Of a stretch of DNA of 64,000 nt, positions 1 through 49,080 are shown piece by piece. A model generated the notes under the pieces. The model had not been told where the DNA came from, did no database searches, and was given only the letters and a program-made list of their open reading frames with translations. Source of the DNA: Sternotherus odoratus. Taxonomy: Eukaryota > Chordata > Testudines > Kinosternidae. The DNA lies in the NCBI GenBank assembly GCA_032164245.1, contig JAVMKO010000017.1:18576756-18640755 (forward strand), read 5' to 3'. Positions within the stretch are counted from its first letter, which is position 1. Each line of letters starts with the position of its first letter. Both the position numbers and the translations under genes were made by a program.

Positions 1-621
1 ATCAACAGGGTGCCCTCTGCATACCAGAATGAAATGAAATCAGTTGCATGGAACCAGCATCAGCTTGCACATCTCCAGCAAATGTGTGGTGATGCCGCTG
101 GACCTACTGGACTGGTGGGGAAGCACCCTCAGAGAGAGATTGCAGGGCAAGGTTTTCCTGGTAAAACTTCAAACTACCCTCAAGAACTGTGCATGGGCCA
201 GTCTTTCAACTTAAAGCCCCCGATTGAGAAGCCTACACCTTCCCCCCCTGTGAATGGATTGCAGGGACCCTTGCCATATACTAATGGGCACTATTTCCAG
301 CCCATGTGGAATAACATTCTGCCCACACCGAACAGTGACAGCTCTGGGTCACAGGACCTTGCCATGCCTTTTCATGGAGGACAGCCGGCAGGGGCACCAC
401 TAGATTGTGCAGCAGGAGCTCATTACAGAGCCGGCGCTGGTTCATCCAGCCAGAATAGTGTGATGCAGACCATGGATTACCTAAGTGGGGACTTCCAGCA
501 GGCTTGCTTCAGAGATCAGAGTATGGCTGTGCTGGGAAAAGTCCATCGGCCTCCCATGAACCGAGCACCTGAACCAACTGATAGTCGAAATCTTCATATT
601 CAGCACCCGGGGTATAGATAG
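1..621 (+). CDS. FAM222B: FAM222B, C-terminal part of the last coding exon (5' truncated by window edge)
   Basis: The frame is open from the first base and ends at TAG (619-621), giving about 206 residues of the C-terminus. The composition is Pro/Ser/Gln/Asn rich with no globular domain, transmembrane segment or catalytic motif. The terminal residues HIQHPGYR and the stretch NRAPEPTDSRNLHIQHPGYR are what I recognise as the conserved tail of FAM222B. No biochemical function is established for the family. The neighbour TRAF4 on the opposite strand agrees with human 17q11.2, where FAM222B and TRAF4 converge at their 3' ends. A GTG at position 10 is only an internal Val codon; the true start lies upstream of the window. 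Confidence 0.9.
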   Translation: MNRVPSAYQNEMKSVAWNQHQLAHLQQMCGDAAGPTGLVGKHPQREIAGQGFPGKTSNYPQELCMGQSFNLKPPIEKPTPSPPVNGLQGPLPYTNGHYFQPMWNNILPTPNSDSSGSQDLAMPFHGGQPAGAPLDCAAGAHYRAGAGSSSQNSVMQTMDYLSGDFQQACFRDQSMAVLGKVHRPPMNRAPEPTDSRNLHIQHPGYR

Positions 622-10050: not shown

Positions 10051-10205
10051 GTTTAGGTTGGATATTCGGAAGCAGGGGGATGGGTTCCCTGGGGCCGTGG
10101 TGGAATCTCCTTCCTTAGAGGTTTTCAAGGCCCGGTTGGACAAAGCCCTGGCTGGGATGAGTGAGTGGGGGTTGGTCCTGCTATGAGCAGAGGGTTGGAC
10201 TAGAC
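10051..10205 (+). mobile_element. CR1 LINE 3'-end fragment, left part
   Basis: The text around GTGGTGGAATCTCCTTCC, followed by the stretches for TTAGAGG, AAGGCCCGG, CAAAGCCCTGGCTGGGATGA and GGGTTGGACTAGA, is the familiar 3' untranslated end of sauropsid CR1 elements. The element is interrupted at 10205 by the hAT-type insertion and resumes at 10904. Terminal ATTCTATG-type repeats are not seen, so the extreme 3' end is lost or diverged. Confidence 0.85.
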
Positions 10206-10895
10206 CAGGGGTCTCAAACTCAAATGACCATGAGGGCTGCATGAGGACTAGTGCACTGGCCCGAGGGCCGCACCACTGACACACACACACACACACACCC
10301 TGCCCTCGCTGCCCTGGCTCCACCCCCACTCCACCCCTTCCAAGAGGACTAGTGCACTGGCCCCCGCACCACTGACACACACCCTGCCCTCGCTGCCCCG
10401 GCTCCGCCCCCTCTCCACCCCTTCCAAGAGGACTAGTGCACTGGCCCCCGCACCACTGACACACCCCCTGCCCTCGCCGCCCCGGCTCCACCCCCACTCC
10501 ACCCCTTCCAAGAGGACTAGTGCACTGGCCCCCGCACCACTGACACACACCCTGCCCTCGCTGCCCCGGCTCCGCCCCCTCTCCACCCCTTCCAGGAGGT
10601 CCCACCCCTGCCCCACCTCCTCCTCTGAGCACGCAGCTCCCCATTCCCTCCTGGAAAGCGCTAGGCACCACCAACAGCTGTTTGGCAAACAAAGCAAGAG
10701 CAATCTAGGAAGTCCAGAGCTAGAAACACACACGGCCCAGCCAGGCAGCAGAGAAGCCTCCACTTCTGGCCCCTCCGTCCTGCAAACTGCTATGGGGGGA
10801 CCGGGGGGGAGGAGGGGCGCCAGGAAGCTTGGCGGGCCGCAGGGAAGGGCTTTGCGGGCCGCATGTGGCCCCCGACTGCATGTTTGAGACCCCTG
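10206..10895. mobile_element. Non-autonomous hAT-type DNA transposon inserted in CR1
   Basis: The element begins CAGGGGTCTCAAAC and ends with its exact reverse complement (14-bp terminal inverted repeats). It is flanked by the 8-bp direct repeat GACTAGAC at 10198-10205 and 10896-10903. An 8-bp duplication with CAGGGG-type ends is diagnostic of hAT elements. It has no transposase frame; the large frames across it come from its internal tandem repeat. Removing the 690-bp element plus one copy of the duplication rejoins the CR1 sequence on either side. Confidence 0.9.
10243..10600. repeat. 84-bp tandem repeat inside the hAT-type element
   Basis: The phrase GAGGACTAGTGCACTGGCCC recurs at about 10243, 10344, 10428 and 10512, and a partial copy begins near 10593. 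Spacings are 101, 84 and 84 bp; the first copy is longer because of a CA expansion near 10278-10298. The two long overlapping minus-strand frames here are period artefacts (84 is divisible by 3). Confidence 0.9.
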
Positions 10896-10925: not shown

Positions 10926-11153
10926 AAGCCTCCAGCACTCTAATGTGGTGGGAGGACCCCTTGGACCGATCAACTCCCTGCCCCCCACAGCTGCTCCCCG
11001 GCCGGGTCCTGGGCTAGTCCAGTCCCTGGACCACCCCCGGGGGAAGTTCACGCTGGGGCCCGAGCCCTGGTCCCGGCGCTGATGCGGTTGTACCTCCCCG
11101 GCGGTCCCCTCGCCCCGCGGGGGAAGCAGGCTGCCTGGCCAGCGGGGCAGGGC

Positions 11154-11159
11154 GTTTAT
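11154..11159 (-). terminator. AATAAA poly(A) hexamer overlapping the carbonic anhydrase stop codon
   Basis: On the minus strand the last codons read GCG CAA TAA ACG, so the stop codon TAA sits inside AATAAA. If used, the 3' UTR would be only some 15-30 nt. Downstream sequence is C/G-rich without an obvious GU-rich element, so use is uncertain. Confidence 0.45.
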
Positions 11160-11980
11160 TGCGCAGGCGGCGGGGCGAAGTTGGCCCGCAGGTCCCGGCC
11201 GTGCAGCGGCTGGCAGGGCCGCCAGTTGTCCTGCAGCGGGCGGGGGGTCTCGCCGGCCGCGCTGCTCAGCAGGCCCCGCAGGGCCCCCAGCTGCTCGGCG
11301 GACACGGCCAGGGGCTCCCGCAGCACCAGCCAGGTGACGCTCTCCAGCAGCGGCGGGGTGGTCAGCGAGCCCGGGTAGGTCCAGAAGTCGCCGCCGGCGG
11401 GCAGCAGGTCCCGCGGCCGCAAGGCGGGGCAGGGCGCCCGGGTGCCGCGGGTGCGCACGGAGCCCAGCGCCCCCAGCAGCGGCTGCAGGGCCGGGCAGGG
11501 CGCGCCCAGGCGGAGCAGCACGGCCACCACGGCCAGCCCGTCGGGGCGGCGCAGCGCCCGGCGCAGCCCCCCGCAGCCCGCCCGCCAGTGCACCACGTGC
11601 AGCTCGCCCGGGAAGCGGCGCCCCTCCAGCGTGTGCTCCGAGCCCCGCTCCGGCCCCGAGCCCCAGTGCAGGTGGAGCTGGGCCAGGCGGTAGGGCCCGG
11701 CCAGGGGCCCCCCGGCCAGCGCCGCCTCCCCGCCGAACTGCACCTGCAGCGTGTGCCCGGGGTTGGCCACGCTCTCGGCCGCCGCCGCCTCGTAGCTGAA
11801 CCGCAGCGGCCGCAGCGCGGGGTCGTAGCGCGTGTCCCGGGCGCGGAGGTCCACGGGGGACTGGCGCCGCCCCCGGGCCGCGGGGAACCGCTCAGCCCAC
11901 CGCGCCGGGCCGTCCTCGGGGCCGTAGCCCCAGGCGGGGGACGCGGCGGCCCCGCTCCCGCAGCAGCCCCAGCAGCTCAT
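11156..11980 (-). CDS. Intronless cytosolic-type alpha-carbonic anhydrase, complete
   Basis: A single 274-codon frame encodes a whole alpha-carbonic anhydrase (zinc enzyme for reversible CO2 hydration). Aligned by eye to CA2, it keeps the zinc ligands H103, H105 and H128 (CA2 H94, H96, H119), the gatekeeper pair E115 and T207 (E106, T199), and the proton-shuttle H76 (H64). The signatures QLHLHWGS, GELHVVHW and YPGSLTTPPLLESVTW are intact. The residue at CA2 N62 is proline, which is unusual. There is no signal peptide or C-terminal anchor, so it should be cytosolic. The first 15 residues form an extra segment with Cys 3, 6 and 7. The start is the first ATG after an in-frame TGA (12026-12028); the -3 base is C, a weak context. 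Family members normally have about six introns, whereas here the reading frame is uninterrupted. The very high GC matches the surroundings. No frameshift or internal stop suggests a pseudogene. Which paralogue it derives from is unclear; DNWRP near the end resembles CA2/CA3. Confidence 0.88.
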   Translation of the reverse strand: MSCWGCCGSGAAASPAWGYGPEDGPARWAERFPAARGRRQSPVDLRARDTRYDPALRPLRFSYEAAAAESVANPGHTLQVQFGGEAALAGGPLAGPYRLAQLHLHWGSGPERGSEHTLEGRRFPGELHVVHWRAGCGGLRRALRRPDGLAVVAVLLRLGAPCPALQPLLGALGSVRTRGTRAPCPALRPRDLLPAGGDFWTYPGSLTTPPLLESVTWLVLREPLAVSAEQLGALRGLLSSAAGETPRPLQDNWRPCQPLHGRDLRANFAPPPAQ

Positions 11981-12400
11981 GGGGAGCCGCCCGCCGGGCC
12001 TCTGCGCCGGGGCGCGACTGTCCGCTCACAGGCGGGGCGGGGGGCGCTGACGCGCAGCGGTCCCGCCGCGTCCCGCGCCCACGGGGCGGCGCTGCGGATC
12101 CGCGCCTGGGGCCCCCGGGGTGGGCGCTGGGCGGGCCCCAAGGCGGCGGCTCCCGGCCCGGTGCGCCTTGGCGGGGTGATCTGCCCAAGAGAGGACTCGC
12201 CTGGGAAATCCGGCCGAGGGTCTCCCAGAGGGGCCTGCGGACCCCCAGCCTGGGGGGGACCAGTGGACCTTGGTGTCCTCCCTGCGGGCGTCAGGCGGTG
12301 GGCGGACCCGTCTGAGCTCAGCTCAGGTCTGGGGTCACCTGGGAGAAGGTCAAGTGGCAGGATGGGATAGTTTAGGGTTGGGGGACCTTTGGGATCCGGC
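11981..12400 (-). promoter_or_regulatory. CpG-rich presumptive promoter region of the carbonic anhydrase gene
   Basis: CpG density stays very high upstream of the ATG and falls off beyond about 12.4 kb. GC-box-like GGGGCGGGG occurs near 12030. There is no TATA box close by. This suggests a CpG-island promoter; the transcription start cannot be placed. Confidence 0.4.
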
Positions 12401-15400
12401 CGTGGCGCGTGGGAGGAGGCCCGGGGTTCACCTCACAGGGTGGGTGTTATTCTTGCCTCCCACGTGCGGGTTCAAGCGCCCAAGCGAACCCGGCCCCCTG
12501 TTTTCGGCCCCTGGATTCTGATGTCGTGTGCGGCCTTTTCCTCTAGCTTTCCTGGCGGGCTCGGGAAGAGCTGCGGGACTGTCCCCGTTTGTGGGGGTCA
12601 AGAGGGACGCAGCGGTCCCAAGGGAGGTCACCGCTCAGCCCAGCCCGGCTCCGCTTGGCTGCTGGTGCTGCCACTACTCAACAACCAAATTCACTGGGAT
12701 CAGCCCAGACGGCTTCCCCCTCGGAGCAGAGCTGGCGTGCGCGGGAGAGCGAGGGGCTGGGGAGGGTGAGACACGCCAGGGCTTCTGCCCGTCGCTGACC
12801 CGGAGCTGAGCCCTCCCGCTGCTGCTGGGCTGTGAGCCACTGACGTCAGGTGTCTGTGTGCCACGCTGAAGCCGCTGTGTCTCATGGGAACCCCCAGGGC
12901 ACATCCGGGTACGTTCAGCTCCAAGCCCCCTGGTCCCTGGCGGGTTTTGTGACGTGATCCCAGACTCTGCCTGTCACCTCCTTACAGCGGGGTTGGCAGG
13001 GGCGGTGGGCAAGTGACCAGCGCGGTGTCCCGACCATGGCGCCCCTGCACATTCAGGGCCTGCTGCCTTTCTCATTCCCTGCCCCCCGGCTCAGCAGCAG
13101 CAACTGAATCTCCTCCCCAGCACCGCCCAGCCACGAGCTGGCAGGGAGCTAGAAGCAAGGTCAGGATGTTCGCCACGCAGCCCTGTGCTCACCAGCCATT
13201 TCAGAGCTGCCTTCCCAGGGGCTTTGCAGGTCCTGAGAGCTGTCCCCGGGCCGCCCCAGAACCATTTCCTGCCGCCTCCCCCTCATTTCCGCCCTCTGTT
13301 TATTTTCACTGCTGCGCTCCTCGTCTCCCCTGTCTGTGCACGGCCGGGCCCTGCCTTGGAGCTCTCGCCCCTCCTCCCTCAGCAGGCCCCAGCTCCAAAC
13401 CGGACCCCTGCGCCCCCTCATTCAGTTACACAGCTCCCAGCTCTTCCCACCCAGCTGAGAGCGGCTCTGCAGGGACCCCAGCCCGAGACGCTGACTCCAG
13501 CATGGCTCAGGACCCTAAAAGGGCGCGAGTCCTGCTTGTGGGTGGAGTCCATGATCACACCTGAGGCCTCCAGCCTGCACCCGAGTCAGACCGCGCTGCC
13601 CGCTGCTGGGAGAGCCACTGCGGCCGTGGAACCGCTCTAGTAGGGGCGCCGGGCAGGCCAGCACGGGACCTTTACTGGTGCCTCTGTGCAGAGTCTCACT
13701 GAGCTGTCTCCCCCCCCCCCCCCAGGCCCCTTTCTGGAGCCAGGCCGGGGTCCTAATGCAATTAGTGCTCATTAAAGCCAAGATTTACAATTGACCCTAA
13801 TCACTCTACCTGCCTCCATATGGCTGTTCCCGTCTCCTGTCACTCGCCTGTTGCCTCCCTCGGAGCTGCGCCCTCAGTGTGTCCGGGCGAAGAGGGGACA
13901 GATGCTACTGGGCGCGCCCTGCCCCGGGCTCACGGGCGGGGCCTGGCCAGGGGGAGCAGTGAGGGCCTCTTGCCTGCCCGTGCCTGTTGGCATGGAAATC
14001 CCTCCAGCCTGCTCCGCAGCCTCAGCCCCAGCCGGCTCGGGACCCAGGAGCAGGGCTCAGGACGCTGGCGCACGTTGTCTGGGGGAGGCCGGGGGCCTGG
14101 CCATCAGAACTAACCCATCGCTCCCGTGGTGTCCCAGCCAGGCCCTCCTGGTGCCCCCTCGGCGGGGTCAGGAGGAGCCCCCCACAGCTGCCCATGCGTA
14201 GTGCACCCCCTGCCCTGCCTTTCCTGGTGGCTGCATTCCGCCGAGGTGAGCTGCCAGCAGAGGTGTTTGTCCCCTCAGAGGTTTATTGCAGCTCTGTGCT
14301 GGAGCTGGCATCCCGTGGCAGTGATGGGGGGATGGGTATTGGCGCTGTTAAAGTCTGAGCCCCGTGCCCGTCTGCCCGCTCCCAGCTCTGTCTCCAGGAG
14401 TCATTTACTGTTCAGTGCGCAGAGGCTCGGATTCCCCTCGGAGCGATGAGCGTTTCTCCCAGGGGCCGTAAGGGGAGCTCTCTCCATTGGGGGCGGGAGC
14501 CATGGGAGCTGGGCGCACGCCAGGGCCCGGGCTGTGGAAATTCACCCGCTAGTCTGTGGTCTGGCTCAATGGTGTCGTGTCCCCATTATCCCAGCTCCCA
14601 GACTCCCTTCCTAGCCGGGCTGCGACACTGGCAGGAGCCTGCCCGGAGGTAGCAGAGCCCACCCCTGCCAGCTGGTCACACCTTCATCCACTGGCAGCAT
14701 TTAGGGCACAGCCGGGAACACCCTCCCTGGGCACTTCCAGCCCTGGGCGCTGATGGTTGCTGCTTGCAGCCGGCATGGGGAGCAGGACCCGTGTCCTGCT
14801 GACTCTCCAGGCTGGACTGACTCTCAGAGAGCCAGGCACTGCGGCCAGGTACCCACACGGGCCCAGAGTCAGGCTGACCCCACAGGGACCCCTGCTGAGT
14901 GTATCACAGCAGAGATCCAGCCGATGAGAGGCCCTGGCACGACCACCAGAGGGAAAGTGGTGCCAGCAAGGGGGAGGAGGAACACGAACACCGGCCTGCC
15001 CTCAGGAACCAGCTGGCCTTGCCGGGCCTGTGACACACACTTCCAGCCCAGCCAGCCCTCTCCCGCTCTGCCCTGCCCCCACAAGGAGAGCCCAGGGTGA
15101 GGAGACAGGCAGCCCTCTCCCCAGCTGCTGGCCCAGATGGGAGTGCTGTGTGCCAGGGATAATCACCTTAAACTGGGGCAGCACTAATGCAAGTGTGGGA
15201 TTAGCAGGCTGGCAAGGTGACACCCCCCACCGAGCCCTGCCCATCCTGCCTAGTGCTGCCTCCATTTGCCACCAGCCCCCCTTCCCCCCATTGCAGTCCG
15301 GTCCTGTGACTGGGGGGGGGGGGGGGGGGTGAGGCAGCAGTAGGGGCAGAGAATTCCTTCCAGCCAGCAGCATTTACCACATCCACCCAGCCGCTGCGGG

Positions 15401-19168: not shown

Positions 19169-22100
19169 TCAGGGCAGGATCCGCGGCGGGATCTCCACCG
19201 AGGCCTTGATGAAGACGGTGTTGTCTCGCACGTAGTTGCGCTTCTTGATGTCCTCATGGGCGATGAACTTGGGGTACCCGAAGCCCAGGGTGCTCTCGTC
19301 CAGGGAGCTGCGGGAGGCCCCCGGCTTCTGGAAGTTCTTCCAGTTGGGGTCGGGGAGGAAGGTCTCGGTGATGTGCTGGGGCTTGGCCAGCGAGGGGTCG
19401 CTCTGGTCCAGCAGGGAGAAGGTGACGCGGTAGGAGAAGGGCCACTCCAGGAGGTTGTCGTAGTGGCCTGGCAGCACCCGGATGTAGACGGAGAGGTGGC
19501 TGCCCTCCCCGCTGCCGTTGCCGTTGAGGAAGGCGGAGACCTGCAGCTTGTAGCCGTAGCGGTGGGTGTAGAAGGGCGGGCTGAAGAACTCGTAGTTGCT
19601 GCGCACTTTGGACTCCTGCAGCTTGCGGGCGTAGTCCGCGATCCGCCAAATCAGGACCCCGGCGCTGCTGACCGTCAGCTCCTCCACGCCCTGCCGCAGC
19701 TCCTGGATCTCCTGCCGCTGCCGGCTCGCCAGCGAGCACACCAGGCCCAGGTGCACCTTGGTGCTCTCCTCCAGGTGCCGGCTCATGGCCAGCTTGGGGC
19801 ACTGCGCGGAGGAAGGAGCGAGCCATCAACGGAGCACAGCACGGCCAGGGAGGGGCCGGGGGACAGCGAGACCCACGGAGAGGGAGCCGAAGGGGGCAGC
19901 ACTTACCCGATGTTTGCAGCCAGCGTCTTTGAAGGGGCACAACACCAGGGCCGTGCTGCAGTTCTCCTTCAGGTGCCCGGCCAGGTCCTCCCTGGCGATG
20001 CTGGGGGTCCCGCACTGGTTGGGGCAGGGCACGGGGTAGCGGGGACACTGGTACTGGTGGTTCTAGGGCAGAGGGGGGGGCGCCGTTAGCAGGAGTAACA
20101 GTCCCAGAGCCCGGCTGGGACCCGACCTGGGCACGCCCCATGCAGCCCCCGCCGAGCCCCAGGGAGCGGCACCCTCCTCTGCCCCCCGGCCCCCCTCACC
20201 TGGATGGTGTCGAAGACGAACTGCTTGGTGCAGTAGGGGCAGGGCTGGGTGCGCTTGGGGCAGTCGGCCAGCGCGTGCTGGGACAGCAGCCGGCGCATCA
20301 TGCGGGCCCCACACTTGTTCTCGCAGTACACGCTCTCCTGGGGGCACACGCCCTGGTGATTCTGGGGGGACGAGAGCGGGATGAGCTGGTGCCAGGGGGC
20401 ATCACCCGCGGGGCCATCTGGGCACCGGCCCAACCCTCGTGCCAGCCCCCCACAAGGGTCCCCAGTGCCCACAGCACCCCTGTCCCTGCGAGGGTCCCTG
20501 GCTCCCCGCCCCACGCTGTCCTCAGCCCCGCCCCCGCACCTCGTAGGCCTCGCCGGTGAAGTCGCTGGCGCAGAACTCGCACTTGACGCGGCGCTTGGGG
20601 CAGTCGTGCTGCAGGTGCTCGGGCAGGTGGCGCCGGCTCAGCTTGAGGCTGCAGCGGTTGGGACAGGGGATGACGTTGAAGCCGCACGTGCCGAGATGGG
20701 GCTGGCGGGACAGGAAGGTGAGCGGGGGAGGGGGGTCCGGTATCACAGCCCAGCCCCAACCCTCCCCTCGCGCCCCCCCCTGCAGCCGCGGCCCAGGCCC
20801 CCTCACCTGCAGGTGCTTGATGTGCCCGCTCCAGCGGCAGCCCTCTTCGCTGTGGATGCAGCGGATGGTGAGACTCAGCACCTGCGCCTCCAGCTCGGGG
20901 TCCGGGTAGATCTGGGGAACGGGACATTTGGAGCCCCTGGGTCAGAACAGGACCAGGCCCGTCCCGGGGGCCCCAGCCACCCCCAGAGCAGGCACCGGGC
21001 ATGGGCAGGGGGAGGCCTGGGGCCCAAGGCAGGCAGGGGGGACTCGGCCCCTGCCCCTCACCGGGGTGTCCGTCTCCCCGACCAGGCTCCAACTCAGCCA
21101 GGGCAGGGTCCTGCCTCTGAGCCTCCCCCATCCCAGCCGCTCCACACCCGAGCGTCCCGCGTCCCAATCCCCCTGCCCGAGAGGTGCCCGCCTGAGCCAC
21201 GAGGGAGAGGCTGGACCAACCTGCCCGGGTGCATTAGCCCCTCTCCTCCTGCCCAGGGACAGAAGGGGCTGCGGGTCGGGAGTGAGGGGCACCCCAGAGC
21301 TGGGGAAGGAAGTTTTGCCCCATTAGCATTTCTCACGGGCGGGTGGGGGCGGGGCCCGACGCCCAGGGGTCCTTGCTGGGCCCAGGAGCTGTGGCTGGAC
21401 GTCCTCAGGCCCCCAAGTCCACGGTGCCCCCCCCCCCCGGTGGGGTCGAGCGGTTTCCTGTTGGCAGGCGGGGCTCTAGCAGCCGTTCTCGGGAGAGGTG
21501 CCAGTTTCCCAGCCCAGCTGCACGAAGGGCTCTCACGCCGCCGAGCGACGTTGGCACCACAGTCTGTGCCAGGCCTGCTGGGGGGTGTGGGGAGGGGGGG
21601 TCCCCCATGGGCCCAATTGGGGCAGCCCAGCTCCTTGGGCTGGGGCCAGGTTGCAGGCTGTGGGAAGGGGGCGAGTCGGCTCCCCGCCCGCTGGCTGACG
21701 TCCCTGCAGACGGCTCGCCCCGGCTCGGGGGCCTCTGTCCCTGCGCAGCAAATGGGGGGAGGCAGGAGACAAGTGGGGAAATGCTGCACCGGAACCAAGC
21801 TCCCTGTGGGGGCACCAGGCCCCCCCGGGGCAGGGCGGGACTCTCACCTTGGCGTAGTCCAGGGGCAGCTGATCCTCCGGGCACTTGAAGACGCCTTCGC
21901 TGCAAGGGAAACACGCCAAGGTCAAAGGTGGGGGAAGTGGGAATTTCTGACAAGTCCTCGGTGTGCCTCAGTTTCCTCTACACGTGGCACTTCCCTGTCC
22001 TCAGAGCAAACCGCAGGGCAAGACACAGGTGTGTGCGTCACCTCCCTGACTGAGCGCTCCCCCCCCCCCGGCCAGGGGAGCCCAAACCCAGTGAACCGAA

Positions 22101-25100
22101 TGCCCCGTTCTCTGCTCAGCCTCTGGGGCGCACGGCCCCTCTACTCTTCCCCCAAGAGCAGCTGTGTCTGCTGGCTGCTCGATGCCACTAGCACCCCGGG
22201 GAGGGCAGCAGCAGCTCGAACGCCCGGCACAGCAGCCTGGTCAGTGACCCCAGCAGGGCGGCAGGTTGTTAATTTTTGGTGACCCAGAACAGATCCAAGT
22301 CCTCCCCCCCCACCCCCGCCTAAGGCTCTGGGTGGGAGTTTGGGTGCAGGGGGAGGTGAGGGGTGCAGGCTCTGGGCTGGGGCAGGAGGGTGCAGCGCTT
22401 ACTTCGGGCAGCTCCCAAAAGTGACCCCCACCCCCCACTGGCAGCAGCTCCTAGGCGGGGGACCCGGGGGGGTCTCCACCCACAGGTACCACCCCCGCAG
22501 CTCCCATTGACCACAGCTCTCGGCCAATGGGAGCTGCAGAGTCGGGGCAAGGCCAGCGGGTGAACACACACACAGGCCAAAGGGCCGTTCACTTCTGGGA
22601 GTGGCATGGAGCGAAGCTGAGCAGGAAGCAGCCGGGGGCCCTGGGCTCTTTTCAATCACCCGGGGGCAGTAGGTGGGGCCGGGAGACGCCCCAGGGGAGA
22701 GACCTGGCCCTGAACATTGGTGGAACCAGGCCCTGAACATTTCTGGCACCTGGGCACCATGGGCCCTCACAACTGGCATGCCCCAGGGGGAGAGCAGAGC
22801 AGACCCTCCCAACCCCAGAGCCCGGACAACAGGCCCAGCCCCCAGGCTGATGTGGAGCCCCATTGTCTGGCCCCACAGCTCCGCAGCCAGGTGCTAAAGG
22901 TCTCCGCAGCTCCATTAGAGGTGAGAAATCTGCCACCCCACAGCGGAGCCAGGGGGCCTCCCCCCTCTGGCAGCTGCTCGCCAGATGTTTGGGGCGGGGA
23001 ATGTGCCCAGGGGCTCCTGGTTTCCAGGAAACTGCCAGCGCTGGGTCCCATGCAGCTCCCCCAGCCTGACCCTGTGGAGGCCTGATGGGGGAGGGGGAGC
23101 CCCGGACTGAGAGGGGCCTGGGCACCAGGGGAGGGGGGGAACATGCTCTCCAGCTTCCCACAGCCCCCAGGAGCCGGCACTCAGCTGGGAGCAGGGGAGG
23201 GTCAAGCAGAGGCCACAGGACCCTTGTGGGTCCCCTGCCGGCCCGTGGGAGCAGCCCAGATGCCCCCGCATGGGGCAGGGGGTGGCATTTGCCAGAGGGG
23301 CATCCAGCAAACAGGAGGTGCGGAGCCGGTTAGTGCCCCCTCCCCCCGGCTCAGCCCTCACCTGGCAGGGCCCAGCCACCTGCACCAGGGCTCCCCGGCC
23401 TGTCCCCCCCCTCCCCCCCCCGGCCTGGGACACTGCACCGGGCCCCTCTCCGCAGGCGGCCTGAGGGGGCTGGCTCTGCCTGGGCTCAGTGGTGCCTCCC
23501 CCAGAGGGTGCTGAGCCTGCAGCCAGCACCGTGGCCAGTGCAGGGGGCCAGGCACTCGGACTTTCCCAGCCCATCCCTCCGGCTCCTCGGGGGGCGGAAA
23601 CGTGCCCTGCCCCCGAACCTGCCCCCGCCGGCTCAGCTCCAGATGTTCCCCCGACCCCCAGCAGCAGCTGCAGCAGCGGAGTCAGCTCCAGCCCAGCCCT
23701 GGTCCCACGGGAAAGGCCTTGCCCAGCGCTGACAGGCCAGTGCCGGGGGGCCTCACGCAACCCGTGTGCAAGGGGCCTGAGCCCCCCAAGCTAGTCTCCC
23801 CCGGCCAGGGCTATGGGGAGCCAGGGGTGCATGCCAGGCCTCGGACACCCCGGATCCAGCGAACCCCGAGACCAGGCCGGGTCCGAGCACATGGCTGCCC
23901 ATTAGGTGGCCCAGGCCCCCCAGGGATCCAGCGTACCCCGAGACCAGGCCCCGTAGGGCAGAGCCAGCGCCAGGCAGGGAGTGTCAGAGACAAAGGTCAG
24001 TTCCCCAGTGGGCGTGACGCCCGCGGGCAGCACCTCCCTGTGAGTCACTGGGGCAGGGTGGGAGGTACGGGCTCCCCCGACACCAGCTAGACTGGCACAT
24101 GGAGCCCCCGGCACCCCCTGTGGGTCCCAGCTCCAGGGCCAGGCTGGTGGGCGTCCCTTCTCTCGCCCCCCCGCCCGGGCCCAGCTCAGCCAGCTGCTCC
24201 TTCCCTCTCCCAGGGCCTCCCCCCAGCTGCTGGGTTAGTTACGTGAACCCCTGATGGAAATAACCAGACTCGGGAGCGTGACACCAGATCCCCTGCCGCC
24301 CGCTGCTTTGAGCCCCAGGAGAGCCTGAGGGAGGCCGGAGCAGGGGGGCTCCCACCTGGCCCCTGCACAGATGACGGGGTTTAGCGAGGCCCAGGAGCCG
24401 TGATTTCTGACCCGACATGCCCCTACCCCACCCCCCACCTACCAGATGCTGCTTCCTTCCCCTGACACCAGATCCCTGCTTGGGCGAGGGCTGCGGAGCT
24501 CAGTCCAACTGGCTCCCGGATTCCCTGAGGGACAAACAGGGATGGGAAGGGGCCAGGCTCCTGGGATTCCCCGCATGCCACTGGGCCTTGGCCAGCCCTG
24601 GCAGGCAGCAGGCCCCAGGGAGGGAGTTGAAGGGGCGGCGTAGCCAGTCCTGGGGTCCCCCATGCCTGGCAGTGGGGAGGGCCCGCACTGGGCAATGCTC
24701 TGCTCTGCCAGCCTGCATGCGGCCAGCCCCCCGGCTCAGATCCCCGCCCTGTCTCAGGCACTGAACGGGGAGCTGTGACTGGAAGACAGCAGGGCCCCGA
24801 GCCCCACGGCACTGGTGGAGGGGCAGGGGCCCCAGCCCAGCCGAGATTTGATGGCAGCACCGGCTAAGGGCTTGACGCAGAATTGGCCGCGCAGAGAAAC
24901 GCCCAACAGCGAAATCTGCTCCCAAGCAAGGCCTGGGGAACCGCGGCCCAGACAGGCTGAGGAGACACGGGCCAGCCAGCCGGCGCTTCTTCCCCCTGGA
25001 GCCACCAACACGGCAGCTCCTGCCCCCGGATCTCACCACTAGCCACACTTGCCAGGTTCTTGGAGACCCCCAAGATGAGGAGATTGAGCTGGGGGGGCCT

Positions 25101-28100
25101 CGCCTCCCCCTGCTCAGGGACCCTCCTCCAGCCCCGCTGCACAACGCCCGGCTCCCTGGTCTGCCCAGGACGAGGTCTAGCAGCTGGCAGAGCGCGACCC
25201 GCCTGCCGTCAGGGACCCTGGCGCCGCTCTCCAGCCATGACGGGGTTACACCCCCCGCAGCCCTAAATCGCTCGCCAGAATTAAGAAGCCGCCGGACGAG
25301 AAGAGCCGGTGAGCACGTGTTTCACGCGTTCCCAGCAGCGGGCCCCGGGGCTGCTCGGGCCGGGCAAAACCCCAGCCCACACCGCAGGCAGCCGGTTCCC
25401 AGCCCCCCAGCTCTGCTGAACTGTACGCACAGCAACCAGCCCGGCCACGCCCGGACCACCCGGCCTCTGCACCTTCCTGGGGCAACAGCTCCCCTGCTTC
25501 CCAGGGTGCCTCCCGCAGCTGGACAGGGAACCGCCTGCCCTTCCCCCACAGCCCCTAGTCTCTGTCCGCAGGGTGCTGCAGGCTCACGTGGAGGCCCTGG
25601 GCACTGGCCAGCCAGGGCCCCCTTCCCGACTCCCAGGGGCGGGTCACACGGGTCCAGCCTGGCATCCAACCCGCCCCCTTATCCGGCGTCCAGGCCGGGT
25701 TATTTCTACAGGACAGAGCCCTGCCCCCGCTGCCTGCTCTAGAACAAGGGCTCAGCCCCTCTGCACATGGCTGCTAGGCTGGGGTCCCCCCGCGGATGCA
25801 CCAAGAGGGAAACCACCAGGGTTCACCAAGAGGGCTGGGTGGTTCTTGCTGGCTGAGCCCACTTCCCTGCAGGGCCCCAAACCAACCCGGTTTGTTTGGG
25901 CGGCCGCCGTTCCTGCGGGGACGGTTGCTGGGCGAGGGGAAGAAAGGCCCAGCCCGAGCAGCAGGGAGCAGCCTCCACACACCTGCCTGTGCAGCCAGGA
26001 GCCAGGTGTGCCGTGGAAGCAGGACAGACCCGGGGAAGGGTGCAGACAGCAGCAGGCTCCTCAGGGCTGCCCCGACAGCAGCTCGCACAGCTGGGCATGG
26101 CTCACCCGGCGCCAGCCTCAGCACGTTCCCAGCCAGCCGCGCGCTGCCCTGGATCCCACGCCCAGAAGAGGCGACTAAGCCGAGGATTATGGTACAAGGC
26201 GAACGAGGCTCCTTGGAAAGGCTGGAGCCAGCTGCGGCCGGGGGGAGCCCAGCCCAGCCCAGCCGCGCCAGCAGCCCCAGTGGAGTCTGGGCACAGGCTC
26301 CAGGTGACCCGGCGGGACCCCAGCGGCGTATTACGCTCCTACGCTGAGTGCCATGCGGAGACAGACTGGAACAGGCTGCCGGTCCCTCACGGTGGGGAGG
26401 GGGGAACGGACATAATCCCCAACCAAGTCTGCTCTCCGCAGCACGGCTGGCTGGGCAGGGAATGTGCTGAGGCAGCACTTTGGGAGTGAGGGCCTTGCCT
26501 TTGACCGTCCTTGAACTCGGCTGCCCAAGGGGGGAGGAGGGACACAGCTCCCTCACCCGGACCCTGCCAGGCTCCAGGCGCCAGCAGCAAGCTCAGGCCC
26601 CCTGCCCAACAGTCAGTTACCAGAGACTGACCCGAGCTCATGCCCCGGGGGCAGAACAGCAGGGTCAGCACCTTCTGAGGGTCTGAGGCAGCAGGATGTG
26701 CGAGAGCCAGGGCAGAACCCAGGAGTCCTAGTTCCCACCCCTCCTCCCCCGCTCTGACCCACTAGACTCCACTTCCGAGAGAACCCAGGAGTCCTGGCTC
26801 CCAGCCCCCTGCTCTAATCCAGCAGACGTCCCCACTCCCTGTCCCGGACATTAGAAATCTGAACAGGAGCCAAGGGCTGGACGCAGACCCCAGGCAGCAT
26901 CAGGGCAGGGGTCCCAGGGAGAGAAGTCTCTTCCAGCTGCCCCCAGCCACCTCCCCAATGCCCCCCCCCAGCACCATAGGATGGAGGGAGCCTCCCTTGA
27001 GGAACCCCCCGTTTTGCACAAAGTAGGTTCCTCTGGCCTTCATGTGGCACTCGCCTGGCTCCTCCCAAGAACCCGGGGACTGCCCAGCTCTGCTCAGTGG
27101 AGGGGCGCCCTGCCGGAGGGTCACCCCCAGAGGGCGGGGCCCTTCCCTGACTTGGTGGGGTGGGGGCCATTGAATGGGGTCAGACAACAGCCCCCGTTTA
27201 CAGCTCGCTCCACGCCTGGACCGATCAATCTGGATTCCTGGCGACAGCCCGGCAAGACTGGGCATGTCCGGCCCCCACAGCCCCAGGGGGGCAGAGCCAT
27301 GGGGACTGGGAGACGGGCTCTGAGCCTGGAGCCCATCCCCCAGCGAGCTGGCACCCTGCCAGGACACTCCACACCAGCCCCTTTGGGGAGGGGCCAATAG
27401 CCCCACGCGGAGCCCAGCCTTACTGCCGAGAGCTGCTGAGAGCAGGGCCAGGGCTGGTCGTGCCCCGGTGGCACCGCGGACAGACACGGGTAGCTCGCCG
27501 GTCCGGCTGGGCTGGAGAAGCCTGTAGGTCTCGGGAGGGAAGGTGCCTGGCTGGGAGCAGGGGAAAAGCCCCAGGGACTGTGACAAGAGGCCCCCTCTGG
27601 GGCAGCGCCCCCAGCCGCTCACGATGCCAGTGGACACCTCAACACGGGCGATGGGCAGGGCTCAGCCAGAGCCTCCTCCGCCGGGCCGGGGCCAGCGCTC
27701 ATGGCAGCCCCAGTAGTGCGGAGCCAGGAAACATCAACGTCCTTCCCCGTCCCCCCTCACTTGCTGTGCCTATGGGAAGCCCCCCGAGTTCCCTCCACGC
27801 AGCGCTGCAGCCCCTCCGAGGCTGGGCTGGCTTTGGCGCCGGAGCCGAGGTTGGCTGCGCAGGGTCCTTCCTTCTGGCGCTGCACCGGGTGCGAGGCGAC
27901 GCTGGCCCGGCCGTTCGGAGGGTTCTGGGCACGCAGCCCCCCAACAGGGAGCGACGGGGTGTCCCGCTGCAGAACGTGAATGAATCCGTCTCCCTGCGCA
28001 TGGATAGGCTGAGCTGCCTGTCACTCTGCCTGGCCTCATTCAGGTAAAGAGCCACTGAGAGGCCTGGTGGGTGGTGCTGGAAGCAGCTGGCTCTGGGCAG

Positions 28101-29953
28101 GTTGGTGGGCGCCCTGGCAGGGCTGTGGACAGCTGGCAAGCCTGAGCCGCTGCGTGCCCGGCGGGGGGACCAGGGACAGCACACGCCAGGCGCTGGCAGC
28201 AATCGGGCAAGTCTAGTTTCACGAACCGCAGGCAGGGGATCCCCCTGCCCAGCCATGGGGTGTGGCCAGGGCCCGGGCCCCAGAGCTCCAGTCTCTGAGC
28301 AGGGACGGGGCGAATCCTGCCTGGGGGATGGAGTCCCACAGCCAGGAGAGAGGCAGGGCTGGGAGACAGGCCAGGTGCTCCCAGGTTTCAGCCCGGTTCC
28401 GATCAGCGCTGCCATTGCGGAGCACCAGGCTGGGGAGTCCGGCAAGGGCAGAACTAAACCCCATTGGACACACACGTTTCCCAGCACAACAGGCGCAGGG
28501 ATCCCCAAGGCCCCAGGAACAGGATCATACAAGCAACGTGCAAAACGGCCAAGGCCACTGCACGGGCTGGTGACCCCGCACTGCCCCCCTCGGCCTTCAC
28601 CCCCCCCCCCCAGCCCTGCCCACACCGGCAGCTGCTCTGTTGTGACCCGTGTCACTGTCCTGTCCGGAGCGCAGGGCGCTGGACACGCACCCAGCCCGGT
28701 TCTCAGCGGGGTCCGGGGCGTGGGTGGAGGGTCTCGCCCTGGCCAAGGGTTTCCCTCGCTGTCCTGCCCTCCCCCATGACAGGGAACCGGCAAGTCTCCA
28801 CGCAAACGGGGGAGGGCCCAGGGTGGCGGGGAGCTGCCGCGGAGCTGGGCACGTAGCCAGCCTGTTTGCAGGGTCCCTCCCACTGCCAGGCCATGAGGGC
28901 CGGGGTGGGCCGGGGAGCGGAGGGACGTTCAAACAAAGGGGGCTGGAAGGGGGCGAGCAGAACCGACAGGACGGCGCCACCTCCCAAGGCAGAGCCGGGA
29001 ACGCATCAGCGCGTGAGCTGCCAGGACTGGGGGGTTAACCCCCCACCCCCACCCCGAGCCGGGCAGCCCCCGCTGGGGGGAGCAGAGTCCGGAGCTCCTG
29101 GCCCCAGTCACCGTGCAGAGCGAGCCTGGCTTCTCGCCCCGCCGGGGGGGGGGGGGGGGGGGAGAGACAACGGGGCCACCCCCCCTGCGGCGCCCCACGG
29201 CAGGCTCGAGGGCTTGGGGGAGCCCCGGCAAACGACGCGGTTAAATGCGGGTCCCGCCTGCGGCCCGGCCAGCTGGGAGCCCCGGGGCAGGTCCCACCCC
29301 GGTCCCCGCCTGCCGGAGCCGGGCAGCCCCGGGGCAGGCGGAAGAGCCACGTGGCCGGGGTCGGGCCAGGCCGGGTTGTCCCGGTGCGAAGCCCGCGGGA
29401 GTGATGCGATCCCGGGTCCCGGGTCTAGTCTCACAAACGGGCCCCGGATCCCCGCCCCCCGGGGGGTTCGCTCCGCTCCACGCCGGGGGAACGTCCCGCC
29501 ACGAACCCAGCCCGGGGGGCGGAGCCGCCTCCGCACCTGCCGGGGCACGTCACGAAAGCAGCGAGTTTCGGCCCCACCTACCCCCAGCGCGGGCACCCCG
29601 GGGCGCGGCGGGGGGCGCGGCCGGCGGCAGAACAAACCGTCCGGGCCCGACTCCCCACGGCCCGGGCGCGGAAATGCCGGGGGGGGCGCGGAAATGCCGG
29701 GGGGGGGGGCTTTGCCCCGGGGCCCCGCCAGCCCCAGACCGGCGACCCCCCCACACCCGGGTCCCGGCGCTACGTGGAGCGACCCCCGGGTCCCCCCCCC
29801 GGCCGCGCACCTGAGGAACTCCTGGAGGCAGGTGTCGCAGAAGCGGTGGCCGCAGGTGGAGACCTGCACGGGCTCCCGCATGGCCTTGCCGCACAGCGGG
29901 CACAGCAGCCGCCGCTTCGGCTTCTCCAGGAACGTGTAGTCGAAGCCGGGCAT
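19169..29953 (-). CDS. TRAF4: TRAF4, TNF receptor-associated factor 4, complete in seven coding exons
   Basis: The product is a RING/TRAF-zinc-finger/MATH adaptor acting at tight junctions, in TGF-beta/BMP and TNF-family signalling and in morphogenesis (family knowledge). Coding exons: 29811-29953, 21848-21899, 20807-20911, 20540-20701, 20200-20361, 19907-20062, 19169-19801. All junctions are GT-AG and in phase, and together give 470 residues, the human length. The start MPGFDYTFLEKPKRRLLCPL is conserved. The RING runs from C18/C21 through C34, H36, C39, C42 to C54 and D57. The next four exons encode TRAF-type zinc fingers, three of them in blocks of 52-54 residues. The last exon (residues 261-470) holds a short coiled coil and the MATH domain, including YGYKLQVSAFLNGNGSGEG. 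Intron 1 is about 7.9 kb; the others are short. Most other frames over this locus are antisense shadows. Confidence 0.97.
22310..22640. repeat. GC-rich interspersed repeat fragment of turtle type
   Basis: The succession of 'gggtgcagg/ggctctgggctggggcagg', then 'cttacttcgggcagctccc', then 'gcagctcccattg...ccaatgggagctgc' matches a repeat I recognise as frequent in turtle genomes. The last two phrases form an inverted pair around CCACAGCTCTCGG. No terminal repeats were located, so the boundaries are approximate. Confidence 0.45.
26720..26830. repeat. Interspersed/tandem fragment with 'AACCCAGGAGTCCT' units
   Basis: AACCCAGGAGTCCTAGTTCCC and AACCCAGGAGTCCTGGCTCCC recur about 65 bp apart, each followed by a 'cccgctctgaccc/cccctgctctaatcc' phrase. 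This is a short two-unit tandem of a motif common in turtle assemblies (recognition from memory). Confidence 0.5.
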
Positions 29954-30200
29954 GGTGGGGCCGGGCCGGGGCCGCTCGCTCGCCCGCCCGCCCGGGCACC
30001 GACTGGGGCCGCGCCGCTCAGCTGCTCCAGCTCCAGCGGGCGGCTCCGCCCAGGGCGGGGAGGCGGCTCCGCGCGGTCCTAGCGCCCGGTCGCTGCAGCG
30101 GAGCGAGCGAGCAGCGGCTCGGGGCCCGTCCCCGGGGTGACGCCGCGACGCCTGGCGGCAGCAGACCCCGCGCTGCGCCCCCGCCGCCCCGCTCAACGCT
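28900..30200 (-). promoter_or_regulatory. TRAF4: TRAF4 CpG-island promoter
   Basis: CpG density is very high over exon 1, the first part of intron 1 and about 250 bp upstream of the ATG at 29951-29953. GC-box-like sequence occurs near 30,040-30,065 and no TATA box is evident. The interval includes a run of about 17 G (29146-29162). The exact transcription start is not determinable here. Confidence 0.6.
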
Positions 30201-33200
30201 TCTTCCCCCGGGCTAGGGGCACGGCTGGGGCACTGGATTGTCCCAGCCCGTGTGGCTGGCGGGAGGTCGGGAGTCCCCCGAGCCAGGCCAGAGCTCCCGG
30301 CTCCCCCCTTGTGCCCTGCAACCTGCGGAGGAAGCAGCGCCGAGGGCAGGGAAGCCGGCTCTGGTCCAGTCTTTGCTCTGCCACATGCTCACTGGGGGTC
30401 CCTGGTTGAGTCACTGACACCTTGTGCCTCAGTGTCCCTCCCGCAGCGGTTTCCTTACCTGTGCCCGGAGGAGTCGTTAACTCTGCTCTGCCAGGTGCTG
30501 CGGGGCCAGCCCGTCTCCCACCGGCTAGTTGGGGGGGGTGGCCACGCTCCCAGGCCAGGCCCAGGAGCCACCGGCTCAGCACCCAGGTGGTGGGGGAGGG
30601 GCGATTACTTCCCTCCCTGGTTTTGCCCTGACTGGCCCTTTTCTTTCTCAGAACTGAATCACGCCCAGTACCAGGCTAACCACACTCCTGTCTCCGCTCC
30701 CCCCTCAGCACTGCCACCCACCCCTGCTCTGCCGCCCAGGGCTACAGCGGGGGAGGAGGGCGCCACCTCGCGTGCACAAAGTCATTACATCTGGCAGGTC
30801 TGGAGTAAGATGCGGCTACCCACAGCCGTTCTCAAACTGTGGGTGGGAACCCCATTTTAACGGGGTCGCCAGGGCTGCCTTAGACTTGCTGGGGCCCAGA
30901 GCCCTGAGCGGCAGGACTAGGTTCCCGCCTGGGGTGGACGTTCAGGACCTAAGAGCACAAAGATCTGCAGTGACCAGCCCAACGGCTAATTTCAAACTCT
31001 TTTGTGGGCTCCTGAGACCTAGACAGCCACCCCTGCCCCAGGGCCTTTGCCCCAGGCTGATGAGGGCAAAGAAAAATCCTCTTCCCTGATTTTCAGAGCA
31101 AAGAACTTCCCATTTCTCTCCCTCTCTCTCCCCGCAACCCCTCAAGCCTCACCCCCTTCCCCTCAGCTGGGAGAGGATGGGCAGCACCCGTGGGGGGCCC
31201 AGCTCGGACTGCGTGGCCAGTATGCCCAGCGCCTCCCCTTGCTCTCAAAGCGTTTGGAGGGAGGATAAAAGACACAAGGAGCAGAGCCAGACTCAAGCTA
31301 CCAGCCTCCACCTGCTGCTCGCAGAAACCAAAGCAGCATGTAGGAAGATTTGTCCCTTTCCCCAGCAGCTGGGAGAACAGGTCCAATCCCTGTTGGGTGC
31401 TCACCGGCTGACAGGGTGAGGAGCGGGTGTCTGGAGTCTAACCAGCCCATGCTCTAGTCCTTGTCCCATGGAGGGTAGCGGTTGCTATGGAGCACCGGAG
31501 GGATTCCTGGGGGAAATGCTATGTGAGTAAATCCCCACGGTGACACTCCCTGCTCACCTTCTTCTCCCCAAAAAGTCTTGTTCAAATGAAGATAATCCCC
31601 CAGGAGCCCACCTGCATTTTCTAGAATCAAGGCAGGCACAAAACTTGTGGGGTGCAGGCTGAAGCCCCCCATACTCAGCCTGGAGGGGGGATATCCCAGG
31701 AAATCTGTGCTAACAGCTTCATCTGCCTCCTGCATGGTCTTGCCCTACCTGCTGTCAAGCGACTGGATATATGACCAATGGGTAATGAATGGGGTCTCAG
31801 CCAGCGCATGACAGGAGCGTGCTGGGATTCCTCTCCAGCAGACTGGGCACCAACCCGACTTGAAGGGCCGGCCCTGGACAGCTCTGGTCTCCAGCACACA
31901 CTAAGAGGGCAGGCAGGAAAGGTTAACAAACAGGCTTTGTGACAGCAGGGAGCTGGGGGCAGAGTCCGCTAAACTTTAACCAACAGGAATTTGCTCCCTC
32001 ACTTTCCCAGAGCTCCTGGAAATGCTACGTGAGAGATTAACCCTGGGTGGCCTTCTGATGCTCTGACAACACTGGGCACATCTGGAGCGTGTTGACTGGC
32101 CTCCCACCTGGCCCATGCCATGTGGGTAGCTATTCTTCCCATTCCACTTTCTCTCTTGGGGCAGGGAGCCTGGTCCCAGGGGAGCTCTGCAGTCCCTTTC
32201 TGGGTCTGCCAGAGCGCCTGTCCCTGCCATGGGGATCACAAACAGGAAAGATCACCCCATTTCAGAGCCTGATCGGTATCAAATATTGTGTATCTATGGC
32301 CCCTTCGGAGCCAAATGCCTCTAGGCACATAGGGAGTAACTAGAGATCCCTTTTAAGCACGGCAGTCATCCTACACCCAGTGCCCCCAACAGCCCATCAC
32401 AACCCAACTGCAAACACACACACTTGCTCTAACTTTCAGCTGAGAATGGAACAAAGCGGCCTGGAACTTCACCAGCTCCCTAGAGATTTTCTACTTCTTG
32501 AGTCCCTCCCCTCCCTCTTCCTGGTGTCCCCATCCCTTCACACAGGGAGAGCCGATTATGGCTGCTGCTGCACCCTGGGAGATGGTAAGGGGAGCTACAG
32601 AAACTACATTGCCCTGAGTTTTGTGCCCCTTCCTCTGCCTCTGAATCCCTACGGCAAGTGCTGGGCCTTCAGCTTTCCTTCAGGAACGTGAACACTGCTC
32701 AAGAGCCACCTGGACTGGGGAGAACAGGAGGGAAATGGAGAGCCCCGGCAGCCATCCCTTTCCAGCATCGTCTCCTGACCACGTCCTTTATTCCGGCCAT
32801 CCTCCGCGCACCAGGCTAGCTGAGGGACACTGCCGCTCTGGCAGGACAGGGCCCATCTCTTCCTCTCTGCGCTCCAGGCCCGTGACTTGGGAAGAGAGCT
32901 GAGCGTCAGGAGAGCACATGAAAGGGGTACGTGCACCGCAGGGCCTGTGGATCCGGGGGCATTGGCCCTCAGCTGGGAGATGGACCCTACCCCAGCTTCT
33001 CCCCACACAGCAAACAAGCAGCTGATGGGAGCGTGTGCGGGGAAACAGCCCAGAGGTGAGGAATGGAATGGCCCAGGCAGGGAGGACGTGCCTCAGCCTG
33101 TATCTCCAGAGCTCTATTGTTGTTCTGGGGCCTCTTTGGTTCTTTTCCCCAGCTGGGTCACAGTCCAGGATTAAATTATTCAAATGGCCCTGCTGAACTC

Positions 33201-48403: not shown

Positions 48404-48560
48404 CACCCCGCAGCCCCGGCCCGGCTCCCCTCGTCTCCATGGAGACACTTCCGGGCTCCACTACGGCGGCCGCGGAGGAACATTCCGGCGCGTTCTCCGC
48501 ACTGCAGCCCCCTCGCCCAGGCAGGGTCGCTGCAGGGGGCAGCAGCAGAGCCATGGACGC
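48404..48560 (-). promoter_or_regulatory. NEK8: NEK8 promoter region with palindromic X-box-like site and ETS site
   Basis: Immediately upstream of the NEK8 ATG, the perfect 14-bp palindrome GTCTCCATGGAGAC (48433-48446) abuts ACTTCCGG (48447-48454), an ETS/GABP-type site. A TEAD-like ACATTCC lies near 48481. RFX factors bind palindromic X-boxes of the form GTTGCCATGGCAAC in ciliary-gene promoters, so this is a plausible though imperfect X-box. The stretch is CpG-rich and has no TATA box. Confidence 0.5.
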
Positions 48561-48619
48561 TCTCAATAGGGGGGCAGAGGGGCCTGGGGCACCACGAGGG
48601 TACATAATGGCCCCAGGGA

Positions 48620-49080
48620 GGGGCCCCGTGCCCCCCAACTTCCAGGGAGGTGGGCCCCGTGTCCCCCAGCGCCCAGGGAGGGGGCCCCCGTGTCCCCCAG
48701 CGCCCAGGGAGGGCCCCCCGTATCCCCCAGTGCCCAGGGAGGTGGGCCCCCGTGTCCCCCAGCGCCCAGGGAGGGGGCCCCCGTGTCCCCCAGCACCCAG
48801 GGAGGTGGGTCCCGTGTCCCCCAGCGCCCAGGGAGGTGGGTCCCGTGTCCCCCAGCGCCCAGGGAGGTGGGTCCCGTGTCCCCCAGCGCCCAGGGAGGTG
48901 GGTCCCGTGTCCCCCAGCGCCCAGGGAGGTGGGTCCCGTATCCCCCAGCACCCAGAGAGGGCCCCCCGTGTCCCCCAGCGCCCAGGGAGGGACCCCCGTG
49001 TCCCCCAGCGCCCAGGGAGGGACCCCCGTGTCCCCCAGCGCCCAGGGAGGGGGCCCTGTGTCCCCCAGTGCTCGTGGCGG
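48620..49080. repeat. 31-bp minisatellite just upstream of NEK8
   Basis: About 14 imperfect copies of a unit read as CCCAGGGAGGTGGGTCCCGT plus GTCCCCCAGCG. Copies between about 48800 and 48945 are almost identical; the flanking ones vary by small indels and substitutions. Long frames on both strands are repeat artefacts. Confidence 0.95.

What the first reader, a model, noticed from the sequence alone, without database searches (positions are those of the whole stretch)
11156..11980. Complete intronless alpha-carbonic anhydrase gene between FAM222B and TRAF4
A single exon encodes a whole cytosolic-type carbonic anhydrase with zinc ligands, gatekeeper residues and proton-shuttle histidine intact (H103, H105, H128, E115, T207, H76), and an in-frame stop 48 nt upstream of its ATG. 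Cytosolic family genes normally have about six introns, so an uninterrupted frame implies retroposition or wholesale intron loss. Sauropsid genomes are dominated by CR1 LINEs, which do not mobilise poly(A) mRNAs efficiently, so functional retrogenes are uncommon there. I know of no carbonic anhydrase at this syntenic position in mammals. An intact frame in such GC-rich DNA suggests selection.
Basis: partly seen in the sequence, partly recalled or inferred. Interest (0 to 1): 0.82.

Follow-up and report, generated by a model that had tools for sequence, protein, structure and literature searches.

The report
Turtle-wide intronless carbonic anhydrase retrogene
This turtle genome carries an extra, intron-free carbonic anhydrase gene between FAM222B and TRAF4 that looks like an old copy made through RNA, has kept its catalytic residues in the turtles compared, and has lost nearly all of its lysines.

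Summary
In detail: window 11156-11980, MINUS strand, encodes an uninterrupted 274-residue alpha-carbonic anhydrase (PF00194, 247.5 bits) between FAM222B and TRAF4. The introns of the same genome's CA2 gene are missing, and no other CA match lies on this contig, so retroposition is the best reading; no poly(A) tail or target-site duplication remains.
It is not private to this species: orthologues occur in Caretta, Gopherus and side-necked Pelusios (86, 84, 72% identity), so it predates living turtles (about 157 Mya, PMC3473239). The next proteins listed are at most 52% identical. Zinc ligands, gatekeepers and shuttle histidine are kept in all four, and changes among turtles avoid family-conserved columns (p = 1.6e-4). 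I infer a working cytosolic-type enzyme.
The open frame itself is weak evidence: such GC-rich DNA stays stop-free over this length 13% of the time. Rarity of retrocopies is consistent with a four-family control.
The parent is unresolved: CA2-type favoured, turtle CA3 rejected, long branch.
New points: no lysine or isoleucine (pI 9.8), GC3 98.9%, a CpG island, a poly(A) signal overlapping the stop codon, and an MSCWGCC start shared by three turtles. Expression, dN/dS and orthologue introns were not testable.

The parts
11156..11980 (-). intronless alpha-carbonic anhydrase CDS, 274 codons plus TAA
11672..11674 (-). codon of zinc ligand H103 (CA2 H94)
11666..11668 (-). codon of zinc ligand H105 (CA2 H96)
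11597..11599 (-). codon of zinc ligand H128 (CA2 H119)
   Evidence: position computed by hand from the reading frame
11753..11755 (-). codon of proton-shuttle H76 (CA2 H64)
   Evidence: position computed by hand from the reading frame
11960..11980 (-). N-terminal MSCWGCC, identical in Caretta and Gopherus, not in the Pelusios model; predicted disordered
12026..12028 (-). in-frame TGA 48 nt upstream of the ATG
11155..11160 (-). AATAAA overlapping the stop codon, candidate poly(A) signal
   Evidence: chance of AATAAA/ATTAAA in 60 nt of local composition 0.00045 (computed after seeing it)
11001..12500 (.). CpG island covering gene and upstream region (CpG o/e 0.74-0.88), candidate promoter
12035..12134 (-). 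GC boxes (GGGCGG on +) at 12035, 12084 and 12129; further ones at 11987 and 12300; expected often in such DNA, no chance control made
1..618 (+). 3' end of FAM222B coding sequence (flank)
19169..30388 (-). TRAF4 (flank): MATH exon 19169-19825 to the frame holding the RING exon 29108-30388
   Evidence: name TRAF4 from domains and neighbours

Best explanation
A spliced mRNA of a cytosolic carbonic anhydrase, most likely CA2-type, was reverse-transcribed and inserted between FAM222B and TRAF4 before living turtles diverged. It lies in or acquired a CpG-island promoter and a very short 3' end, and has been kept as a single-exon gene. Its product is an active zinc alpha-carbonic anhydrase (CO2 + H2O to bicarbonate + H+) without an evident signal peptide, so cytosolic or membrane-tethered. 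Shown: no introns in this species, location, turtle orthologues, intact catalytic residues, predicted fold, avoidance of conserved columns. Inferred: retroposition as the mechanism, single exon in the other turtles, promoter use, enzymatic activity.
For: CA2 intron sites of the same genome are uninterrupted here; of 28 CA matches in the genome this is the only full-length one and the only one on C17. Orthologues: Caretta P0002, Gopherus P0003, Pelusios P0004, cluster representatives for 26 sequences; scores fall from 547 bits to 455 (a 446-aa protein named CA3 of Tupaia) and then about 350. All four keep H64, Q92, H94, H96, E106, E117, H119, V121, V143, L198, T199, T200, V207 and W209 (CA2 numbering). 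Columns variable among the four turtles: 13 of 83 family-conserved against 67 of 173 others, Fisher p 1.6e-4. Model pLDDT 89.8; TM-score up to 0.97 (by target) to human CA II. CpG island. A one-residue deletion after 125 is shared with CA2/CA3, not with CA1/CA13/CA7.
Against: No poly(A) tract or target-site duplication, though neither should survive this long. No transcript and no DNA from another turtle seen. The parent is not settled by phylogeny. The constraint test is not significant for the three cryptodires alone (p 0.055) or Caretta-Gopherus (p 0.26). The window copy changes faster (17 unique changes against 5 in Caretta and 4 in Gopherus) and has N62P and an altered C-terminus, so relaxed constraint in this species is possible.
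Confidence: 0.8

Rival explanations
1. An old intron-bearing carbonic anhydrase lineage, older than the amniote CA1/2/3/13 set, that survived only in turtles and lost all its introns in place.
For: Placement is basal or near fish/CA7 in some trees; it carries states such as Q67, F114, P115 and S206 that tetrapod CA2 lacks; stem branch 0.67-0.86.
Against: Long branch and odd composition can produce basal placement; amniote CA2 plus this clade is only 1.2 log units worse than the best tree (p-AU 0.449); W245 and the one-residue deletion are shared with CA2/CA3; in-place loss of every intron is unlikely.
Confidence: 0.13
2. A processed copy that is now a decaying pseudogene in this species and open only because the DNA is very GC-rich.
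For: Chance openness 12.8%; faster change in the window copy and N62P, altered C-terminus.
Against: Catalytic residues kept; window-unique changes avoid conserved columns, 2 of 72 against 15 of 121, p 0.033; CpG island retained.
Confidence: 0.05
3. A real protein that has left catalysis (CA-related protein or structural role).
For: Changed pocket residues: N62P (window only), N67Q, I91A, F131L; pI 9.8.
Against: The recalled mark of catalytically dead CA-related proteins, loss of a zinc histidine, is absent; zinc ligands, T199, E106 and H64 are intact in four turtles.
Confidence: 0.02

Closest known systems
Cytosolic carbonic anhydrase 2 (CA2), same genome and other sauropsids
   Same: Fold, zinc site, proton shuttle; deletion after residue 125; W245, and C248 as in sauropsid CA2
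   Different: 51% identity to own CA2; no introns, other chromosome, 3-residue deletion near residues 72-76, Cys-rich N-terminal extension, no lysine, pI 9.8 against 5.9 for Mauremys CA2
CA7 (own genome, C14; one partial sequence)
   Same: 7 of 58 CA7-only states, among them P87, F114, A125 and T172
   Different: CA7 has the extra residue after 125, F245 and introns; not shown as parent, not excluded by the trees
CA3 (turtle)
   Same: T65, L93 and in two of four E173
   Different: Turtle CA3 has R64 and E200; turtle CA3 as sister rejected, p-AU 4.75e-5
Lineage-shared retrocopies of turtles reported by the Vertebrate Genomes Project (PMC13320880, passages read)
   Same: Processed copies shared between turtle species
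   Different: No gene list was readable here, so whether this locus is in their set is unknown

Membership tests
alpha-carbonic anhydrase (Pfam PF00194) | profile match over the whole domain | tested here: met
   247.5 bits, cut-off 27, profile 2-254 of 254
alpha-carbonic anhydrase (Pfam PF00194) | three zinc histidines, T199/E106 gate, fold | tested here: met
alpha-carbonic anhydrase (Pfam PF00194) | CO2 hydratase activity | not testable with these tools
   needs the protein
cytosolic CA group (CA1/2/3/7/13) | closest relatives outside the turtle set are cytosolic CAs | tested here: met
   named rows among the best 120 are CA1, CA2, CA3, CA13 or plain carbonic anhydrase (one row is named CA-related protein); all 60 PDB rows listed are CA2. 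The trees held no secreted or membrane CA
cytosolic CA group (CA1/2/3/7/13) | no signal peptide or membrane anchor | not tested
   judged by eye only; no predictor at hand
CA2 orthologue group | clusters inside CA2 with support | tested here: inconclusive
   inside the amniote CA2 fork (98/98), outside; p-AU 0.354 for all CA2 and 0.449 for amniote CA2
retrogene | lacks the parent's introns | tested here: met
   against own CA2 and for this species only
retrogene | lies away from the parent | tested here: met
   C17, while all other CA matches are on C2, C14, C7, C12 and C5
retrogene | poly(A) tract and target-site duplication | tested here: inconclusive
   none found; expected to be erased in a copy older than living turtles
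retrogene | identified parent gene | tested here: inconclusive
functional gene | frame and key residues kept across species | tested here: met
   four turtles; three are cluster representatives seen as proteins only
functional gene | transcribed; dN/dS under 1 | not testable with these tools
   no RNA-seq, no other turtle DNA reachable

The most novel reading that the evidence does not exclude
Turtles possess their own carbonic anhydrase, made by retroposition in the stem turtle lineage or from an even older CA lineage since lost elsewhere. It is nearly lysine-free (so hard to ubiquitinate or glycate), basic in cryptodires, and tethered to membranes through a palmitoylated MSCWGCC start, placing CA activity beside acid-base transporters, possibly linked to turtle tolerance of acidosis and anoxia.
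Probability: 0.12. Interest if true: 0.68.

Novelty: new member of a known kind. Interest (0 to 1): 0.42.

Why it matters
If confirmed it is an ancient functional retrogene in a lineage with few retrocopies, kept in both turtle suborders, and a turtle-specific member of an enzyme family central to CO2 and acid handling. Turtles withstand extreme acidosis (recalled), so a private CA is directly testable. It would also be a naturally lysine-free member of a protein family widely used in folding and drug work (recalled), apparently driven by GC pressure. NCBI already names the Gopherus protein 'carbonic anhydrase-like', so a gene model is public.

Tried and rejected
Tried: literature searches for an intronless, retroposed or turtle-specific CA (open-access library only, listings with titles and abstract openings seen) showed no report of this gene. 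A palmitoylated CA was searched too (listing of 4) with nothing of use. PMC12989854 has no mention of carbonic anhydrase in its main text (term search).

Rejected: a second retrocopy at C7:106656523. Its homology to CA2 stops at the canonical intron-3 site, so it is an ordinary exon. Turtle CA3 as parent (p-AU 4.75e-5), CA13 (0.032) and teleost CA (0.022) are rejected or disfavoured. Recoding to escape composition bias did not settle the parent: SR4 placed the clade with fish, Dayhoff-6 at the base. Counts of group-only states found in any of the four copies were indecisive: sauropsid CA2 1 of 5, amniote CA2 2 of 4, tetrapod CA2 2 of 5, CA2+CA3 2 of 3, CA3 3 of 11, CA13 1 of 7, CA1+CA13 0 of 3, CA7 7 of 58, fish 2 of 7, teleosts 5 of 7, fish+CA7 2 of 4, tetrapod CA1/2/3/13 0 of 1. 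The CA7 row is one partial sequence, and the human CA2 row is an engineered variant. Open frame as proof of selection: rejected.

Retrocopy control: four families, PF01655, PF02800, PF01157 and PF00160 (2, 3, 1 and 30 matches). No clear full-length intronless copy. One PF00160 match (C1:207605941-207606315) spans 132 of 159 positions with four stops and lies 2.6 kb from another exon match on the same strand; I could not tell a decayed copy from short introns. The search recovered the parent genes only in part and may miss decayed copies.

Full report
What is there. Window 11156-11980 on the minus strand encodes a 274-residue carbonic anhydrase in one frame. The window is G000:C17:18576756-18640755 of a 1.76-Gb genome. 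Of 28 matches to the protein in that genome one is full-length, this one; the other 27 are partial and lie on C2, C14, C7, C12 and C5. A FAM222-family frame ends at window 618 (+) and TRAF4 lies at 19.2-30 kb (-). The species is a cryptodiran turtle by inference: the copy groups with Caretta and Gopherus against Pelusios (98/95 and 99/97), and its CA2 is 96.4% identical to Mauremys CA2 over 249 residues.

Intronless. The same genome's CA2 gene on C2 is split: donor and acceptor borders were read for introns 2-6, and an acceptor-like border for intron 1, whose exon 1 I did not read. All corresponding positions are continuous in the window frame. CA7-like and CA5A-like genes on C14 match exon by exon as well. 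Together with the separate chromosomal place this makes retroposition much the likeliest origin. I found no poly(A) run (by eye) and no target-site duplication: of 17 direct-repeat families of 10 nt or more around the gene the only one with copies on both sides of it is a 71% pair. At this age none is expected.

Orthologues. The protein search gave three turtle clusters: Caretta (10 members), Gopherus (15) and Pelusios (1). Only the three representatives were read. No other row of the best 120 exceeds 52% identity to the window protein. A profile search with all four gave the same three and then a drop from 547 bits to 455 (a 446-residue protein named CA3 of Tupaia) and about 350 (best 120 of 5363 listed, 7979 candidates scored). 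No crocodile, bird or lizard orthologue was listed. That is absence from a listing, not proof of absence. Pelusios is a pleurodire, so the gene predates the split of living turtles, dated 157 Mya (range 207-104), with turtles leaving archosaurs at 255 Mya (PMC3473239, passages read). The Pelusios model has a different first eight residues or so, which could be a gene-model error or a real difference; I could not see its exons.

Function. Zinc ligands, T199, E106, H64, Q92, E117, V121, V143, L198, T200, V207 and W209 are intact in all four. Differences from sauropsid CA2 in the pocket are N67Q, I91A (V91 in chicken) and F131L in all four, and N62P in the window only. The model has pLDDT 89.8 and matches human CA II, and CA III, at 0.9-1.4 A rmsd in the 50 rows shown. 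The AlphaFold alignment held 32 carbonic anhydrases, so this is a consistency check, not independent proof.

Selection. As a stand-in, columns at least 90% conserved in 38 other CAs vary among the four turtles in 13 of 83 cases against 67 of 173 elsewhere (p 1.6e-4). The three cryptodires alone give 9 of 83 against 37 of 173 (p 0.055), Caretta-Gopherus 5 of 83 against 19 of 173 (p 0.26), and changes unique to the window 2 of 72 against 15 of 121 (p 0.033). Gapped columns were left out. The window copy has 17 unique changes against 5 (Caretta) and 4 (Gopherus); 11 of the 17 are to G, A, R or P, as GC pressure would give.

Composition. GC at codon positions is 0.799, 0.628 and 0.989 against 0.74 and 0.67 in the flanks. 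TRAF4's MATH frame has GC3 0.976 and FAM222B's end 0.481, so the gene sits just inside a GC-rich block. The window protein has 0 Lys and 0 Ile; Caretta and Gopherus have 0 Lys, Pelusios 1, against 11 in Mauremys CA2. pI is 9.8 (window), 8.6 (Caretta), 8.6 (Gopherus) and 5.9 (Pelusios), against 5.9 for Mauremys CA2; the basic shift is thus not shared by Pelusios.

Expression signals. A CpG island (o/e 0.74-0.88) covers 11.0-12.5 kb, like the one at TRAF4's first coding exon (29.0-30.5 kb, 0.71-0.85). The stop codon TAA lies inside AATAAA. In 60 nt of local composition such a signal has probability 0.00045, a calculation made after noticing it. The other three turtles end ...FR where this one ends ...FAPPPAQ, so this species reads on to the TAA within the signal. 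The ATG is the only Met codon of the frame; its context (CCCATGA) is weak by the recalled Kozak rule.

Parent. With 43 rows and no CA1/CA3 the clade fell inside the amniote CA2 fork (98/98) on a stem of 0.86. With 48 rows it joined the single CA7 row at 80/42. AU tests of the clade with a named group: turtle CA3 4.75e-5, teleosts 0.022, CA13 0.032, fish 0.107, CA1 0.111, all CA3 0.175, turtle CA2 0.186, all CA2 0.354, sauropsid CA2 0.413, CA2+CA3 0.442, amniote CA2 0.449, all tetrapod CA1/2/3/13 0.449. One search's smaller set gave turtle CA2 p 0.08. All four copies fail the composition check. The shared deletion after residue 125 (also seen in the three teleosts, not in the three other fishes) and W245 speak for a CA2/CA3-type parent; S206 and F114-P115 do not. 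I put CA2-type at about 0.6.

Rarity. PMC3136929 (passages) lists 78 retrocopies in chicken, 404 in lizard and 4738 in human and ties numbers to LINE1. My control saw no clear intronless copy in four families, with one doubtful match. PMC13320880 (passages) reports that about 50% of turtle retrocopies are species-specific, so the rest are shared. A conserved turtle retrogene is uncommon but not unheard of.

N-terminus. MSCWGCC is identical in three cryptodires while the next dozen residues vary in length. Residues 1-15 are predicted disordered. Cys at 3, 6 and 7 resembles N-terminal palmitoylation sites (recalled). Seven identical residues among sequences 84-90% alike is not significant by itself, so this is an idea only.

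Verdict. A real, old, probably working turtle CA retrogene: a new member of a known kind, with unusual composition.

Noticed in passing
11156-11980: Lysine- and isoleucine-free protein; orthologues have 0, 0 and 1 Lys; pI 9.8 in the window against 5.9 for Mauremys CA2.
   Followed up: partly
11156-11176: C-terminus reads APPPAQ where three other turtles end in a single Arg; apparent stop loss, new stop within AATAAA.
   Followed up: partly
10206-10895: Element with inverted CAGGGGTCTCAAAC ends and an 8-bp duplication GACTAGAC; 40 scored copies of 840 candidates, the others 97-98% identical; hAT-like by recall.
   Followed up: partly
10069-10204: High-copy repeat, 87-90% identity in the copies scored, recalled as the 3' end of CR1, into which the element above inserted; its end faces the 3' end of the CA gene.
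   Followed up: partly
10000: Sharp GC step: 2-kb windows of 0.37-0.48 before 10 kb and 0.62-0.73 from there to 32 kb.
   Followed up: no
47453-49500: Repetitive translated frames suggest GC-rich minisatellites.
   Followed up: no
38827-44303: RCC1 repeat and protein kinase exons on the minus strand, probably NEK8, the neighbour of TRAF4 in mammals by recall.
   Followed up: no
L027:874-972: A CA exon on C7 of an unassigned CA gene, near what looks like the same high-copy element as at 10206-10895.
   Followed up: partly
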